DNA of 64,000 bases. It comes from Halobaculum limi (GTDB lineage: Archaea; Halobacteriota; Halobacteria; Halobacteriales; Haloferacaceae). The notes beneath the pieces are model-generated. The model ran no database searches. It was not told the origin of the DNA and worked only from the letters and a program-made list of their open reading frames with translations. The stretch lies in the NCBI RefSeq assembly GCF_029490015.1, contig NZ_CP120468.1:2914001-2978000 (forward strand), in the 5' to 3' direction. Made by a program: the position numbers and the translations under genes. Shown here piece by piece: positions 55,081 to 61,434 of the stretch (its first letter is position 1; every line of letters begins with the position of its first letter).

Positions 55081-56271
55081 TTAGCGGATGACGTCGAGAC
55101 CGTTGCTGCGTTCGCTCTGCTGGTCACGGCCGCCGTCGGACTGCCACGCTGCCTCCTGCCCGTTGGACTGGGCGTTGGCCTTCGCGTCGAAGTCCATCTG
55201 CTCGCCGCCCTCGATGCTCGCGCGGGACTTGTCGGCCTGCTTCTGCGTGCTCGGGCCGAGGACCTGTGCGCTCTGGACGCCCGTCATAATCGCCATGACG
55301 CGGACCTTTCCTTTGTACTCCTCCTGGATGCGCGCGCCCCAGATGACGTTCGCGCTCGCCTCCAGTCGCTCGGTGATGTTGTCGGCGATGCCCTCGGCCT
55401 CCTTCAGCGTGAGGTCGGGGCCGCCGGTGATGTGGACGAGGCCACCCGACGCGCCGCGGTAGTCCACGTCCAGTAGCGGGTGGTTCATCGCGTCGTTCAC
55501 CACTTCCTGCGTCTTGTTCTTGTCCTGGGTCTCGCCGACGAGCATCACCGCGACGCCGCCCTGATTCATAATCGTGGACATGTCCGCGTAGTCCAGGTTG
55601 ATCAGGCTCGGCTGGGTGATGGTCTCGGAGATGCCCTTGACCGTCTCGGCGATGATCTGGTCCATCACCGAGAACGCCTTGCCGATGGGCAGGTTCGGCA
55701 CGTAGTCGAGGAGGCGGTTGTTGTCGAGGACGATGATGGAATCGGCCTCGTTGCGGAGGTTCTCCAGTCCCTCCTCGGCTTTCACCGTGCGGGCACGCTC
55801 GACGTTGAACGGCGTCGAGACCATACCCACGACGATCGCGCCCTGCTCTTTCGCGATCTTCGAGACGACGGGGGCCGCACCGGTGCCGGTGCCGCCGCCC
55901 ATCCCCGCGGTGACGAACACGAGGTCCGCGTCGCCGAGGACCTCCTTGATCGTCCCTTGGGCCATCTCGGTCGCACGCGACCCCATACTGGGGTCGCCAC
56001 CGGCACCGAGCCCCTGCGTGAGCGACTTGCCCACGAGGATCTTGGTGTCGGCCTCGATCATCTTGAGGTGCTGTTTGTCGGTGTTGATGGCGACGGTCTC
56101 CGCGCCGTCGACGCCGATGTTGTACAGGCGGTTGATCGTGTTGTTGCCGGCACCGCCAGCGCCGATGATGACGATTCGGGGCTCTCCGAACTCGTCGTCG
56201 TCGTCCATCTCTGCCATACTCCGCTGCTCGGCCTCGGCGTTCTCCAAGGCGTCTTGAACGATATCCTGCAT
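55081..56271 (-). CDS. ftsZ2: cell division protein FtsZ2
   Basis: A 396-residue tubulin homologue that constricts the division ring in haloarchaea. [15 protein letters not shown] (from residue 35) and the tubulin signature GGGTGTG (125-131) bind [18 protein letters not shown] is the T7 catalytic loop. The N-terminal [16 protein letters not shown] and C-terminal GLDVIR are FtsZ2-type rather than FtsZ1. The C-terminal Gln/Ser-rich linker (about 340-388) is disordered. The gene follows cdrS by three bases and shares its promoter. Confidence 0.96.
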
Positions 56272-56274
56272 TGA

Positions 56275-56463
56275 TTACACCTTGGCCCAGCTGCGTTTAC
56301 TGCGCTCGCCTCGCGTCCGCTCGCCCGACTCCGCCTGCTCGTTGAGCATGTCGCGGACCGCCGAGCGGATCGCTTCGCTTCGATTCGGGAACTCGCCCGT
56401 CTCGACCATCTGTTCAACCTCCTCGATCTGCTGTTTCGGAATTCGTAGTGTCACACGTTCCAT
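56275..56463 (-). CDS. cdrS: CdrS ribbon-helix-helix regulator
   Basis: A 62-residue protein: [19 protein letters not shown] forms the DNA-contacting strand and first helix and [16 protein letters not shown] the second, a CopG/MetJ fold. The basic tail [13 protein letters not shown] follows. The cdrS-ftsZ2 pair has been shown in Halobacterium and Haloferax to be co-transcribed and to control division. The start is the ATG at 56463, since the frame upstream lacks family similarity. A GTAAGAC inverted repeat lies at its predicted start point of transcription. Confidence 0.93.
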
Positions 56464-56549
56464 TGTTGTGCATTCCCCCGGTAAGACGACGACACGCGAC
56501 CGTGCCCCCACGACCCGAAGTTCGGAGTTTCCCCGCCCCGAATCGGCTC

Positions 56550-56568
56550 GTAAGACAAGCCGTCTTAC
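56550..56568. promoter_or_regulatory. GTAAGAC-N5-GTCTTAC operator candidate for cdrS-ftsZ2
   Basis: A perfect inverted repeat with 7-base arms and a 5-base spacer covers the transcription start predicted from the TATA box at 56593-56602. Ribbon-helix-helix proteins bind such short dyads, and both CdrS and CdrL carry that fold, so autoregulation by one of them is plausible. Confidence 0.65.
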
Positions 56569-56592
56569 GCAGTAGTATCAACATACCCGTTG

Positions 56593-56602
56593 TATATAAA
56601 AA
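56593..56602 (-). promoter_or_regulatory. TATA element of cdrS-ftsZ2
   Basis: TTTTTATATA on the minus strand lies in an AT-rich patch. Initiation is expected near 56570, leaving a leader of about 105 bases that holds one GTAAGAC copy. Confidence 0.65.
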
Positions 56603-56610
56603 TACCGCCG

Positions 56611-56620
56611 ATTGTATGAC
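56611..56620 (-). promoter_or_regulatory. GTCATACAAT element upstream of the cdrS TATA box
   Basis: The same decamer occurs at 57315-57324 upstream of the cdrL TATA box, in the same orientation and with its near edge about 14 bases from the centre of each TATA element. It differs by one base from the GTAAGAC-type heptamer over its first seven positions (GTCATAC against GTCTTAC). Confidence 0.6.
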
Positions 56621-56679
56621 AGGTAGCGTCATCTTGTCTTACAGGCGTCCGCCTGCCCAGCGACGCCGGTCGGGCTGTC

Positions 56680-57273
56680 TTACCGTTTGTCGAGGACGTC
56701 CGCCGCCGGCGTCCGACGCCCACAGCCGGGACAGAATCCCCAGTCCGAGCGGAGTTCGTCGCCGCACTCACAGAACAGGCGGTTCGACGCCTTCTCACCG
56801 CAGTTGGGGCAGTACACGTGGTCGTCAGACACCGATTCGCCGCACTGCGCACACGAGTGATCGGCCGTGTCCGACGGCGCTGCCGCACGCTCGCTCGATG
56901 GCGTCCGACGGTCCGCGCTCGGAGCCGTCTCCGTCACGTCGTCGCGGTCGACGGTCGCGGTGTCGCCACCCTCGACGTTTACCGTCAAGTTCACAGACGG
57001 CGATTCGGGGACGACGGTCCGACCGACGGCTGGTCGGTCGTGGTGGCGCAGTTCCAGCACCTCGTCGAGTCGCGCGTCCACCAGTTCGTCGACGCGGGTC
57101 GCCAACGCGTCGTCGAGCGACGTGCCGTCCGTCTCGTCGACAACGTCGTCCGACGAGTCGGCGTCGTCGAGGTACGCACGCAGGGCCTCCCGCATCACCT
57201 CGCTTTTCGACCCCTCGAGCGACTCGAGGCGGTCGACGAGGTCCGCGTCCGCGCGGAAGGTGATTTTGCTCAT
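56680..57273 (-). CDS. cdrL: CdrL: ribbon-helix-helix and double zinc ribbon regulator
   Basis: A 197-residue protein. Residues 1-40 (KITFRADADLVDRLESLEG, SKSEVMREALRAYL) are a ribbon-helix-helix DNA-binding domain, followed by an acidic linker and two C-terminal zinc ribbons, CAQCG...CPNCG and CECG...CPGCG. This matches CdrL, reported as a regulator encoded beside cdrS-ftsZ2. It ends 217 bases before cdrS on the same strand. It has its own leaderless promoter. Confidence 0.9.
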   Translation of the reverse strand: MSKITFRADADLVDRLESLEGSKSEVMREALRAYLDDADSSDDVVDETDGTSLDDALATRVDELVDARLDEVLELRHHDRPAVGRTVVPESPSVNLTVNVEGGDTATVDRDDVTETAPSADRRTPSSERAAAPSDTADHSCAQCGESVSDDHVYCPNCGEKASNRLFCECGDELRSDWGFCPGCGRRTPAADVLDKR

Positions 57274-57297
57274 TGTCGGCCGTGTTGTTACACATCA

Positions 57298-57305
57298 CAT
57301 ATCAA
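57298..57305 (-). promoter_or_regulatory. TATA element of cdrL
   Basis: TTGATATG is centred 28 bases before the ATG, consistent with a leaderless message. A GTCATACAAT element (57315-57324) lies directly upstream. Confidence 0.5.
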
Positions 57306-57314
57306 TCTGTCCCA

Positions 57315-57324
57315 ATTGTATGAC
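57315..57324 (-). promoter_or_regulatory. GTCATACAAT element upstream of the cdrL TATA box
   Basis: Identical to the element upstream of cdrS, at matching distance from the TATA box. The shared site suggests that one factor controls both genes. Confidence 0.6.
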
Positions 57325-57424
57325 GAGTCGACACGATCGGAGACACGGTGGGGGGTCGGTCACCACTCGCCGGGGGCGCCGCTGGAATCCCAGTCGTCTT
57401 ACACGACCCGTTCGTGAACCGCGT

Positions 57425-58411
57425 ATGCAGCAGCGAACACTCGGCGACGTTGGTGCGGTCACCGAAATCGGTCTCGGGACGTGGAACATCGGCGGCGACT
57501 GGGGCGACGTCTCCGACGAGGCGGGGCGGGAGGCCGTCCGAACGGCACTCGATGCGGGCGTTGACTTCCTCGACACCGCGGACGTGTACGGCGACGGCCG
57601 CAGCGAACGCCACATCGGCCACGTGCTCGACGAACGCGACGCCCACGACGAGGTGACGGTGGCGACGAAGGCGGGCCGACGCCTTGACCCCCACACCGCA
57701 GACGGCTACACCGCAGAGAACCTCGAACAGTTCGTCGACCGGTCACGGGAGAACCTCGGTGAGGACACCCTCGACCTCCTGCAACTGCACTGCCCCCCGA
57801 CGGACGTGTACTACCGACCAGCGGTGTTCGACGCCCTCGCCGACCTCCGAGCACGCGGGAAAGTAGCCAACTACGGCGTCAGCGTCGAACGCGTCGAGGA
57901 GGCACTGAAGGCCATCGAGTACCCCGGTGTCGAGACGGTTCAGATCATCTTCAACCCCTTCCGCCAGCGACCCGCCGAGTTGTTCTTCGAGGAGGCCGCC
58001 CGCCGCGACGTGGGCGTCATCGTGCGTGTTCCCCTCGCGTCGGGCCTGTTGACGGGGACTATCGACCGCGACGCCACCTTCCCGAAGAACGACCATCGCA
58101 ACTACAACCGCGACGGCGAGGCGTTCGACGTCGGCGAGACGTTCGCCGGCGTTCCCCTCGACGCAGGCGTCGACGCGGTGGAGGCACTGGAACCGTACGT
58201 CCCCGAAGCCCTGTCGCTGGCGCAGTTTACCCTCCGGTGGATCCTCGACTTCGACGCCGTCTCGGCGGTCATCCCCGGGTCGACGACGCCCGCCCACATC
58301 GAGAGCAACGTTGCCGCCGCCGACCACGACCCCCTCGACCACCGCCTGCACGGCGTCGTCCGCGACGTCTACGAGGAGCACGTCGCCGAACACGTCCACA
58401 AGCGGTGGTGA
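57425..58411 (+). CDS. aldo/keto reductase
   Basis: A 328-residue TIM-barrel NADPH oxidoreductase. The catalytic tetrad is visible as Asp and Tyr in DTADVYGDGRSE, Lys in VATKAGRR and His in LLQLHCPP; VIPGSTTPAHIESN binds the cofactor phosphate. Substrate unknown. It is divergent from cdrL, and its promoter region holds a GTCTTAC copy at 57396. The stop codon lies two bases from the palindrome that precedes the metal transporter. Confidence 0.93.
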   Translation: MQQRTLGDVGAVTEIGLGTWNIGGDWGDVSDEAGREAVRTALDAGVDFLDTADVYGDGRSERHIGHVLDERDAHDEVTVATKAGRRLDPHTADGYTAENLEQFVDRSRENLGEDTLDLLQLHCPPTDVYYRPAVFDALADLRARGKVANYGVSVERVEEALKAIEYPGVETVQIIFNPFRQRPAELFFEEAARRDVGVIVRVPLASGLLTGTIDRDATFPKNDHRNYNRDGEAFDVGETFAGVPLDAGVDAVEALEPYVPEALSLAQFTLRWILDFDAVSAVIPGSTTPAHIESNVAAADHDPLDHRLHGVVRDVYEEHVAEHVHKRW

Positions 58412-58481: not shown

Positions 58482-59567
58482 ATGACCGACACGTACGACC
58501 CGGAGGGTCGTTCCAGTTCGACCAGGCGTCGATTCCTCGCGGGAGGCACGGGCCTCCTCGCGGCGGGATTCGCCGGCTGTCTCGGCGGCGCGTCCGGATC
58601 TTCCGGCAGCGACACAGACGGTACCGGCGACGACGGGGAAGACGGCCCGGTCGCCGTGGCCTCGTTCTTCAGTTTCTACGATTTCGGCCGAAAGATCGCC
58701 GCAGACACCCCTGTCACCGTTCGCAACCTCATCCCGACGGGCCTCCACGGCCACGGGTGGGAGCCGAACGCGAGCATCACCAGACAGATCGTCGACGCGG
58801 ACGCGTTCATCCACGTCGGCGAGGACTTCCAGCCGTGGGCCGACCGCGCCATCCAGACGCTGAAAGACGACAATGTCGACACGCAGTTGATCAACGTCCG
58901 CGAGGGCGTCGAACTGGTTCCGCTCGCGGAGACCCTCGACCGTGACGAGGAGGGTGTCGGCGAGGGTCGCGGGCTGGATCCTCACTTCTGGCTCGACCCA
59001 CAGCGAGCGAAGCAGGCCGTCGACAACATCACCGAGGGCCTCGTCGAACTCGCGCCCGACCACGAGGAGACGTTCCGTGCGAACGCCGAGACGTACAAAA
59101 CCGACGTGTTGGAGCGGATCGACGCCGACTATCAGGCCATCTTCGACGCCGCCGACCGCGACGTGGTGCAACTGGCCGCACACAACGCGTTCCAGTACAT
59201 CACCGACCGCTACGGCGTCGAGATGCGGCCGCTCGTCGTCAACCTCGCAGCCTCGGGCGACGTGAAGCCGTCCGACATCACGGAGGCCAAGCGCGTCATC
59301 GACGAGAACGACATCCGCTACATCGGCGCGGGCGTCTTCGAGACGCGCCGCCCCGCCAAGCAGTTGATCACGGAGACGCAGGTGGAGGCGTACTTCCCCG
59401 TCACCCCGTACGCGGGCGTCCGCGAGGACTGGGTCGAGAACAACTGGGGCTACGAGGAGATCGCGTACAACATCAACATGCCCACCTTCGAGGTCGTCCT
59501 CGGGAACAAACCGCCCGAGGAGGCCGGCCACGACGGCTGGGCCGCCGAGTGGAGGAACTTCGAATGA
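58482..59567 (+). CDS. znuA: metal ABC transporter solute-binding lipoprotein (ZnuA/TroA type)
   Basis: A 361-residue cluster A-I binding protein. The Tat signal STRRRFLAGG and lipobox FAGC give a lipid-anchored protein outside the membrane, followed by an acidic linker. Metal ligands are expected from HGHGWEPN, DPHFWLDPQ and the AHNAF segment. There is no long His-rich loop, so manganese or iron is as possible as zinc. It overlaps the ATPase gene by four bases (ATGA). Confidence 0.92.
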   Translation: MTDTYDPEGRSSSTRRRFLAGGTGLLAAGFAGCLGGASGSSGSDTDGTGDDGEDGPVAVASFFSFYDFGRKIAADTPVTVRNLIPTGLHGHGWEPNASITRQIVDADAFIHVGEDFQPWADRAIQTLKDDNVDTQLINVREGVELVPLAETLDRDEEGVGEGRGLDPHFWLDPQRAKQAVDNITEGLVELAPDHEETFRANAETYKTDVLERIDADYQAIFDAADRDVVQLAAHNAFQYITDRYGVEMRPLVVNLAASGDVKPSDITEAKRVIDENDIRYIGAGVFETRRPAKQLITETQVEAYFPVTPYAGVREDWVENNWGYEEIAYNINMPTFEVVLGNKPPEEAGHDGWAAEWRNFE

Positions 59568-60376
59568 GCCACGCGACCGCGGACACCGACGGAGAACGCG
59601 CCGCCGAGCGAAACGGCGCAGCGCCCGCGGACGCTACCCGCGAGTCCGTGGTCTCGCTGTCGGACGTCACGTTCGGCTACACCGCCGCACCCGTGGTCGA
59701 AGACGTGAGTATCGACATCCGCGCCGGCGAGTACGTCGCCGTCGTCGGCCCGAACGGCTCCGGCAAGTCGACGCTGATGAAACTGATGCTCGGCCTGCTT
59801 CGCCCCGACGAGGGGGAGGCACGCCTGTTCGAGAAGCCCGCCCACCGCTTCGACGACGGCCAGCGCATCGGCTACGTCTCCCAACACGCCAGCGCGGCCA
59901 AGGAGATGCCAATCACCGTCCGTGAGGTCGTGAAGATGGGTCGGTTCCCGCACGTCGGCTTCGGTCGACTCGGAGCGGAAGACTGGGCCATCGTCGACGA
60001 GGCGCTCGCGACCGTCGGGATGGGCGACTTCGCCGACCGACGGATCACGAAACTGTCGGGCGGCCAGCGCCAGCGGGCGTTCATCGCGCGGGCACTCGCG
60101 GGCGAGGCAGACCTACTCGTCCTCGACGAACCGACCGTCGGCGTCGACGCCGAATCCGTTGAGGCGTTCTACGACCTGCTCGCGTCGCTCAACGACCGCG
60201 GCATCACCGTCCTCCTCATCGAACACGACCTCGGCGCCGTCACCGACCACGCCGAGCGCGTCGTCTGTATGAACCGAGAGGTGTACTTCGACGGCCCGAC
60301 CGAGGAGTTCGTCGGTAGCGACGCCCTCGCGCGGGCGTTCGGCACGGCCGTCGGCGTCACGAGTGATCGCGCATGA
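59564..60376 (+). CDS. znuC: metal ABC transporter ATP-binding protein
   Basis: A 270-residue ABC ATPase. GPNGSGKST is Walker A, LSGGQRQRAFIARAL the signature, DLLVLDEPTVGVD Walker B and LIEHDLGAV the switch. A 30-residue acidic N-terminal tail precedes the ABC core. The ATG overlaps the upstream TGA, and the downstream permease start overlaps its own TGA, so the three genes form one translationally coupled operon. Confidence 0.95.
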   Translation: MSHATADTDGERAAERNGAAPADATRESVVSLSDVTFGYTAAPVVEDVSIDIRAGEYVAVVGPNGSGKSTLMKLMLGLLRPDEGEARLFEKPAHRFDDGQRIGYVSQHASAAKEMPITVREVVKMGRFPHVGFGRLGAEDWAIVDEALATVGMGDFADRRITKLSGGQRQRAFIARALAGEADLLVLDEPTVGVDAESVEAFYDLLASLNDRGITVLLIEHDLGAVTDHAERVVCMNREVYFDGPTEEFVGSDALARAFGTAVGVTSDRA

Positions 60377-61434
60377 CGTTCGCCAGCGCCCCGACCGCAC
60401 TCGGGTCGCCGTCGCTCGCGGCCGTCGTCGCGCCGCTGCTCCAGTCCGACGGGAGCGTGCTCGACCCGATTCTCGCGCCGGTGTACGCGCTGTTAGAGCT
60501 GTGGTCGCTGCTGATGACCGCACTCGGTGAGGCGACCGGACTGGAACTGCTCCAGTACGGCTTTATGCACCGCGCCATCCTCGTCGGCCTCTGTATCGGC
60601 GTGATGGCCCCACTCATCGGGACGTTTCTCGTCCATCGCCAACTCGCGCTCATCGGAGACGCACTTGCACACACCGCGTTCGCGGGCGTCGCCGTTGGCC
60701 TGTTCCTCAACGGCGTGTTGAGTCTCGGCGTCTCGCCGTATCTCACCGCCGTCGTCGTGGCGGTGCTGGCGGCGCTGCTCATCGAGGTCATCTCGGAGGT
60801 GACCGACGCGTACAACGACGTGTCGATGGCCATCGTCCTCTCGACGGGCTTTGCGCTGGGGACGGTACTCATCAGCCTCAACGCCGGAGGCCTCGCGGTC
60901 GGCATCAACCAGTACCTGTTCGGGAACCTCTCGACCGTCTCCGCGGAGAACGCCGCCATCCTATTGGTGTTGTTCGGCATCATCGTCGCGACGGTGGCGC
61001 TCACCCGCAACCAACTGCTGTACGTCACCTTTGACGAGACGGCCGCCGAGGTGTCGGGCATCCCCGTCGCCTGGTACAACCGGATTATGGTGATGCTGAC
61101 GGCGCTGGTCGTCGTCGGCGCGATGCAGATTATGGGCGTCATCCTCGTCGCCGCGATGCTGGTCGTCCCCGTCGCGGGGGCGTCGCAAGTGTCGCGCAGT
61201 TTCACCGAGTCGCTGCTCGTGTCGGTCGTCCTCGCGGAACTGGCGGTCCTGTTGGGCATCGGCGTCGCGTACTACGGCGAGGCGACCGCCGGGGGCGTCA
61301 TCGTCCTCGTCGCCGTCGCCATCTACGCCGCCGCCGTCGCCCTTGGCAAACTCATCGAAGCCCGCGGCGACGACGACGCACCCGAACTCGGCACCATCGA
61401 CGGTGACGACGGCGAGGCTATCACCTCCGACTGA
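60373..61434 (+). CDS. znuB: metal ABC transporter permease (ZnuB/MntB type)
   Basis: A 353-residue membrane protein with about eight to nine segments. MAPLIGTFLVHRQLALIGDALAHTAFAGVAVG is the family signature and AAMLVVPVAGASQVSRSF near residue 255 is also conserved. It forms the channel for the ion delivered by the lipoprotein. An acidic C-terminal tail (EARGDDDAPELGTIDGDDGE) is cytoplasmic. The gene ends the operon; 150 bases separate it from katG. Confidence 0.93.
   Translation: MTFASAPTALGSPSLAAVVAPLLQSDGSVLDPILAPVYALLELWSLLMTALGEATGLELLQYGFMHRAILVGLCIGVMAPLIGTFLVHRQLALIGDALAHTAFAGVAVGLFLNGVLSLGVSPYLTAVVVAVLAALLIEVISEVTDAYNDVSMAIVLSTGFALGTVLISLNAGGLAVGINQYLFGNLSTVSAENAAILLVLFGIIVATVALTRNQLLYVTFDETAAEVSGIPVAWYNRIMVMLTALVVVGAMQIMGVILVAAMLVVPVAGASQVSRSFTESLLVSVVLAELAVLLGIGVAYYGEATAGGVIVLVAVAIYAAAVALGKLIEARGDDDAPELGTIDGDDGEAITSD

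What the first reader, a model, noticed from the sequence alone, without database searches (positions are those of the whole stretch)
56481..57402. Shared promoter elements link cdrL and cdrS-ftsZ2
The decamer GTCATACAAT lies at 56611-56620 and 57315-57324, same orientation, with its near edge about 14 bases from the centre of each gene's TATA box. A GTAAGAC/GTCTTAC heptamer occurs six times between 56481 and 57402, including a perfect inverted repeat over the predicted cdrS start site. Both CdrS and CdrL are ribbon-helix-helix proteins, so a compact self-regulating circuit for cell division is plausible. The exact shared element does not depend on any annotation.
Basis: partly seen in the sequence, partly recalled or inferred. 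Interest (0 to 1): 0.72.

Follow-up and report, generated by a model that had tools for sequence, protein, structure and literature searches.

The report
Once-per-genome operator before archaeal division genes
Nearly every salt-loving archaeon sampled carries one copy of the same mirror-image DNA sequence at the start point of its cdrS-ftsZ2 cell-division genes, most likely the docking site of the small regulators CdrS and CdrL; the ten-letter match that prompted the finding is a local variant of that pattern.

Summary
GTCATACAAT occurs twice in the whole 3.48 Mb genome, at the same distance upstream of the cdrS and cdrL TATA boxes, and six GTAAGAC/GTCTTAC heptamers lie at the stated places. 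The two motifs fare differently in relatives. The exact decamer is not conserved: it stands at cdrL in this Halobaculum species only (1 of 137 cdrL promoters). It is a local variant of GTCTTACA (cdrS) and GTCAGACA (cdrL), which occupy that position elsewhere. The heptamer array is strongly conserved: GTAAGAC-N2..6-GTCTTAC occurs exactly once per genome in 142 of 145 Halobacteria, always at the cdrS-ftsZ2 promoter and covering the predicted transcription start. A second box, GTCNGAC-N4-GTCNGAC, marks ftsZ1, most cdrL promoters and published Haloferax CdrS targets. Methanogen-type relatives carry GTCWGAC at cdrS instead of GTCTTAC. Best reading: an autoregulatory Cdr (ribbon-helix-helix) operator whose box changed by about one base in Halobacteria, occupied by CdrL (published ChIP-seq) and probably also by CdrS, because seven genomes without detectable CdrL keep it. 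No text I could search reports the GTCTTAC operator; who binds it is inferred, not shown.

The parts
56275..56463 (-). cdrS, 62-aa ribbon-helix-helix protein (MERVTLRI...)
   Evidence: Pfam RHH_1 E=1.7e-8; found in 145/145 Halobacteria sampled
55081..56271 (-). ftsZ2, three bases downstream of the cdrS stop
   Evidence: Pfam Tubulin E=2.3e-44 and FtsZ_C E=1.1e-35
56680..57273 (-). cdrL, RHH + middle region + double zinc ribbon, 197 aa
   Evidence: Pfam CdrL_M, DZR, RHH_1
56593..56600 (-). cdrS TATA box (TTTATATA)
   Evidence: sequence; a TATA-like hexamer starts 31-34 nt before the inverted repeat in 138/142 genomes
56550..56568 (.). core operator: inverted repeat GTAAGAC-N5-GTCTTAC over the predicted cdrS transcription start
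   Evidence: one copy per genome in 142/145 Halobacteria, all upstream of cdrS
56481..56487 (-). start-codon-proximal box GTCTTAC (minus strand), 24 nt before the cdrS ATG
   Evidence: present 19-32 nt before the ATG in most genomes
56611..56620 (-). upstream box of cdrS, decamer GTCATACAAT (genus variant of GTCTTACA), just upstream of the BRE/TATA
   Evidence: GTCATACAA in 4/4 Halobaculum genomes; GTCTTAC/GTCATAC/GTATGAC at -52 in others
56636..56642 (-). second upstream box GTAAGAC
   Evidence: exact heptamer(s) upstream of the inverted repeat in 111/138 CdrL-positive genomes
56677..56683 (-). GTAAGAC overlapping the cdrL stop codon; membership doubtful
   Evidence: the stop lies inside GTAAGAC in 17/137 cdrL genes
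57298..57305 (-). cdrL TATA box (TTGATATG); transcript predicted to be leaderless
   Evidence: sequence
57315..57324 (-). decamer GTCATACAAT at cdrL, at the position of GTCAGACA in relatives
   Evidence: exact only in this species
57396..57402 (+). GTCTTAC 22 nt before the divergent aldo/keto-reductase ATG (57425); more likely belongs to that gene
   Evidence: equivalent box 125-148 nt upstream of cdrL in 4/4 Halobaculum genomes

Best explanation
The heptamers are an operator array for the Cdr ribbon-helix-helix regulators at the cdrS-ftsZ2 promoter. Core: two GTCTTAC half-sites facing each other over the transcription start (arms on an 11-bp step in most genomes). Flanking half-sites lie just upstream of the BRE/TATA and about 25 nt before the start codon. 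Shown here: presence, positions, conservation and single-copy status. Inferred: RHH dimers bind the half-sites; occupancy over the start limits initiation and sets the CdrS/FtsZ2 level, while the upstream site may help activation. CdrL is the occupant documented by ChIP-seq in Halobacterium. CdrS probably reads the array too: the ancestral array at this promoter in methanogen-type relatives is made of CdrS boxes (GTCWGAC), and genomes without CdrL keep the array. CdrS boxes (GTCNGAC-N4-GTCNGAC) also sit upstream of ftsZ1 and of most cdrL genes, giving a small loop CdrS -> cdrL -> cdrS-ftsZ2. The decamer is a lineage-specific half-site variant (GTC-N-TAC) at the upstream position of both promoters.
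For: One inverted repeat per genome, at cdrS, in 142/145 genomes (reversed control 0 in 144/145). 635 heptamers in the 200-nt cdrS upstreams against 5 in shuffles. TATA-to-repeat spacing puts the repeat at the start site. CdrL ChIP-seq in Hbt. salinarum found a single reproducible genomic site, upstream of cdrS-ftsZ2 (PMC7439475), matching a once-per-genome operator. GTCNGAC-N4-GTCNGAC in H. gibbonsii: 39 places within one mismatch against 1 in the control; the 5 exact ones include ftsZ1 and hisB, and a one-mismatch place precedes a PRC-domain gene, all listed CdrS targets (PMC8406309); dacZ has one GTCAGAC. 25/26 ftsZ1 promoters have the tandem box within 1 mismatch, 80/137 cdrL within 2. All 20 outgroup cdrS promoters carry GTCAGAC/GTCTGAC (39 against 0.4 expected) and only 1 GTCTTAC. 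ftsZ2 is 1.3-2.2-fold lower without cdrS in Hbt. salinarum (PMC7439475).
Against: No binding data were seen at base resolution. CdrS ChIP-seq in Haloferax lists no site at cdrS or cdrL. Seven high-completeness genomes without detectable CdrL keep the repeat, so CdrL alone cannot explain it. The Haloferax ChIP motif is only a figure, so its identity with GTCNGAC-N4-GTCNGAC is inferred from target promoters; psmB, panA and cdc48d were not checked. The repeat is transcribed, so an RNA role is not formally excluded. This genome's own cdrL promoter has no recognisable CdrS tandem box (5 mismatches).
Confidence: 0.62

Rival explanations
1. CdrL-only operator: CdrL took over the cdrS promoter in Halobacteria, the box changed from GTCWGAC to GTCTTAC to become CdrL-specific, and CdrS does not bind there. 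CdrL-less genomes carry relics or an undetected CdrL-like protein.
For: Single CdrL ChIP peak at this promoter (PMC7439475); CdrS ChIP sites are elsewhere; CdrL and GTCTTAC arrays are both confined to Halobacteria; exact upstream boxes are commoner with CdrL (111/138 against 1/7, not corrected for kinship).
Against: The repeat and the start-codon box are intact in all 7 CdrL-less genomes from 6 genera. Relics in several separate lineages should have decayed.
Confidence: 0.2
2. Another class-wide regulator, not a Cdr protein, binds GTCTTAC.
For: Explains the array in CdrL-less genomes and the lack of a CdrS ChIP peak.
Against: The half-site is one base from the CdrS box and uses the same 11-bp step; methanogen-type relatives have CdrS-type boxes in the same promoter.
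Confidence: 0.12
3. RNA element: the repeat forms a hairpin at the 5' end of a leader of about 105-130 nt that controls stability or translation of the cdrS-ftsZ2 mRNA.
For: The repeat lies at the predicted 5' end of the transcript; Hbt. salinarum data suggest post-transcriptional control of this operon (PMC8303175).
Against: Arm sequences, not just pairing, are invariant in 142 genomes, and the three exceptions change on one side only; further copies lie upstream of the TATA box, outside the transcript; the downstream GTAAGAC is missing in 49/142 genomes without matching change in its partner.
Confidence: 0.06

Closest known systems
CdrS/CdrL control of cdrS-ftsZ2 in Hbt. salinarum (Darnell et al. 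2020, PMC7439475)
   Same: Same locus and proteins; CdrL binds upstream of cdrS-ftsZ2 as its only reproducible site; CdrS raises ftsZ2 expression.
   Different: The main text names no DNA motif (the word does not occur); autoregulation and feedback are not mentioned. The operator sequence, its single-copy status and the change of box are new here.
CdrS regulon of Haloferax volcanii (Liao et al. 2021, PMC8406309)
   Same: GTCNGAC-N4-GTCNGAC found here precedes ftsZ1, hisB and a PRC-domain gene, listed targets; the paper describes its motif as symmetric.
   Different: cdrS and cdrL are not among its 18 sites; the GTCTTAC array at cdrS differs by about one base per half-site.
NikR-type RHH operators (GTATGA-N16-TCATAC in E. 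coli; PMC7055735)
   Same: RHH regulator and similar half-site letters: GTCATAC of the decamer contains TCATAC.
   Different: No metal-binding NikR domain in CdrS; the spacing differs. Similarity of letters only, not homology of sites.
aCcr1 of Saccharolobus (cited in review PMC7617429)
   Same: An RHH factor acting on an archaeal division gene (cdvA).
   Different: ESCRT-based division; its box was not compared here.

Membership tests
CdrS-FtsZ2 / CdrL locus of Halobacteria | cdrL-cdrS-ftsZ2 in tandem, cdrS immediately before ftsZ2 | tested here: met
CdrS-FtsZ2 / CdrL locus of Halobacteria | RHH domain in CdrS; RHH + double zinc ribbon in CdrL | tested here: met
   Pfam RHH_1, CdrL_M, DZR
CdrL operator (single genomic site upstream of cdrS-ftsZ2) | element unique in the genome and located at the cdrS promoter | tested here: met
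   one inverted repeat per genome in 142/145 genomes
CdrL operator (single genomic site upstream of cdrS-ftsZ2) | occurs only where CdrL occurs | tested here: not met
   7 CdrL-less Halobacteria keep the repeat
CdrL operator (single genomic site upstream of cdrS-ftsZ2) | direct binding by CdrL to the repeat | not testable with these tools
   ChIP peak published (PMC7439475) but not at base resolution in the text
CdrS box (GTCNGAC-N4-GTCNGAC) | present at published CdrS targets | tested here: met
   ftsZ1 and hisB exact, PRC-domain gene one mismatch, dacZ single half-site, in H. gibbonsii; other targets not checked
CdrS box (GTCNGAC-N4-GTCNGAC) | present at the window's cdrS and cdrL promoters | tested here: not met
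   window cdrL best match has 5 mismatches; cdrS has GTCTTAC-type boxes instead

The most novel reading that the evidence does not exclude
Operator handover: in the ancestor of Halobacteria the CdrS autoregulatory boxes (GTC-N-GAC) at cdrS were converted to the asymmetric form GTC-T-TAC, read by CdrL or by CdrS-CdrL mixed dimers, insulating the division operon from the rest of the CdrS regulon, with exactly one such operator kept per genome across a whole class.
Probability: 0.3. Interest if true: 0.75.

Novelty: new variant of a known kind. Interest (0 to 1): 0.56.

Why it matters
CdrS and CdrL are the known transcriptional regulators of archaeal FtsZ-based division, but I found no published operator for CdrL and no explanation of how the cdrS promoter is controlled. 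This gives an exact, class-wide, once-per-genome candidate site, a written form for the CdrS box, and an evolutionary contrast (GTCWGAC in methanogen-type relatives, GTCTTAC in Halobacteria, retained even where CdrL is lost) that makes the question of who binds it directly testable by binding assays and promoter mutants in Haloferax.

Tried and rejected
Decamer as the conserved shared element: rejected, exact copy at cdrL in this species only. Decamer family as a genome-wide regulon: rejected, one-mismatch copies equal the control. Heptamer as a genome-wide regulon: rejected, rarer than the reversed control outside this cluster. CdrL as sole reader: weakened by CdrL-less genomes; PF24252 is an imperfect marker because it also misses G123 and G021, where CdrL was found otherwise. 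Co-loss of the upstream and downstream boxes with CdrL: suggestive but confounded by kinship, since CdrL-positive sisters in genus g34 also lack exact upstream copies. RNA hairpin: disfavoured, no compensatory change. Two translation requests failed because I mis-set the aldo/keto-reductase start. Haloferax volcanii itself did not come up in genome contigs, so H. gibbonsii stood in for it. No structure predictions were run.

Full report
WHAT IS THERE. The window holds ftsZ2 (55081-56271), cdrS (56275-56463) and cdrL (56680-57273) on the minus strand. In the whole genome the exact decamer occurs only at these two promoters. The heptamer occurs 56 times genome-wide, fewer than its reversed control (86), yet six copies fall in 922 bases here.

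CONSERVATION. I located cdrS in 145 Halobacteria genomes, fetched the upstream DNA and oriented it. All 145 cdrS promoters contain the heptamer: 635 copies in the 200-nt upstreams against about 5 in first-order shuffles. GTAAGAC-N2..6-GTCTTAC lies upstream of cdrS in 142 of 145 genomes, with spacer 4 in 107 and 5 in 30. A genome-wide search finds exactly one copy per genome in 142 of 145; the reversed control is empty in 144. Since each of those genomes has one copy in all, and each has one at cdrS, the repeat is specific to this promoter. A TATA-like hexamer starts 31-34 nt before the repeat in 138 of 142, placing the repeat at the predicted transcription start of a leader of usually 100-135 nt. 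Another GTCTTAC lies about 25 nt before the cdrS start codon in most genomes.

THE DECAMER. At cdrS the decamer sits 52 nt before the repeat. Other genomes have GTCTTAC, GTCATAC or GTATGAC at that same place. All four Halobaculum genomes of the sample have GTCATACAA there. At cdrL the exact decamer is found in this species only (1 of 137); relatives have GTCAGACA or GTCNGAC at that position. So the exact ten-base identity is a local coincidence laid over two related half-sites.

A SECOND BOX. ftsZ1 promoters carry two GTCNGAC heptamers on an 11-bp step just upstream of BRE/TATA: 25 of 26 within one mismatch, and 80 of 137 cdrL promoters within two, against about 1% in shuffles. In Haloferax gibbonsii the tandem box occurs at 39 places within one mismatch against 1 in the control, although many one-mismatch places are inside genes. 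The five exact places include ftsZ1 and hisB; one one-mismatch place precedes a PRC-domain gene; dacZ has a single GTCAGAC. All four genes are on the published list of Haloferax CdrS ChIP-seq targets (PMC8406309). I take this as the CdrS box; the published motif is a figure that I could not read. psmB, panA and cdc48d were not checked.

WHO READS THE ARRAY AT cdrS. For CdrL: its ChIP-seq in Hbt. salinarum shows one reproducible site, upstream of cdrS-ftsZ2 (PMC7439475), as expected of a once-per-genome operator. Against CdrL alone: seven Halobacteria of high completeness (six genera) have no CdrL by whole-genome protein search or by PF24252 (an imperfect marker), yet keep the repeat and the start-codon box. 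For CdrS: 20 relatives outside the class carry GTCAGAC/GTCTGAC arrays at cdrS and virtually no GTCTTAC. CdrL was not found in the 12 of these that were searched, apart from two weak partial hits. This suggests that CdrS autoregulation is ancestral. The first eight residues of CdrS are invariant in the 145 Halobacteria. Against CdrS: the Haloferax ChIP list contains neither cdrS nor cdrL. My best reading is a shared Cdr operator with CdrL as the documented occupant and CdrS as a likely second reader.

FUNCTION. A repeat over the start site suggests steric control of initiation; the upstream half-site suggests an activating position. CdrS overexpression blocks division in three species (PMC7439475), so tight control of this operon is needed. 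These mechanistic steps are inferences.

ALTERNATIVES. A CdrL-only operator, another class-wide regulator and an RNA hairpin are discussed under rivals. The three genomes without an exact repeat change one arm only, which favours a DNA site over a paired RNA.

NOVELTY. None of the listed papers on CdrS or ftsZ2 in the held library contains GTAAGAC or GTCTTAC, and the Darnell paper has no occurrence of the word motif. Supplements were not readable and most subscription papers are not held, so priority is not certain. The locus and regulators are known; the operator, its single-copy status and the change of box from methanogen-type relatives to Halobacteria appear new.

Noticed in passing
57396-57402 and 57425-58411 (+): A GTCTTAC lies 22 nt before the ATG of a divergent aldo/keto reductase; an equivalent box lies 125-148 nt upstream of cdrL in all four Halobaculum genomes, so this gene may be a genus-specific target.
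   Followed up: partly
upstream of cdrL in many loci, e.g. L059, L232: A conserved element TTAAGGGTTATTATTC about 50-100 nt upstream of cdrL looks like the promoter of a divergent tRNA gene (tRNA-Tyr-like sequence in L232); it is absent in Halobaculum, where the reductase is the neighbour.
   Followed up: no
L041, L049, L075-L077, L096, L100, L105 and others: Some cdrL promoters of families f3, f2 and f8 carry GTATGAC or GTAAGAC 14-17 nt before the cdrL start codon, near its predicted transcription start.
   Followed up: no
cdrS leaders of family f4, e.g. L113, L120, L122: A conserved GCGTCTGACAGGGGCGCG lies between the last two GTCTTAC-type boxes, an apparent CdrS-type box retained inside the leader.
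   Followed up: no
56677-56683; 17 of 137 cdrL genes: The cdrL stop codon TAA lies inside a GTAAGAC heptamer.
   Followed up: partly
58482-61434 (+): Downstream of the reductase lie genes resembling a zinc/manganese-type ABC importer (binding lipoprotein, ATPase, permease), judged from the translated ORFs only.
   Followed up: no
L110 (genome G137, genus g34): This genome lacks cdrL while three other genomes of the same genus have it, a recent loss useful for testing what CdrL adds.
   Followed up: partly
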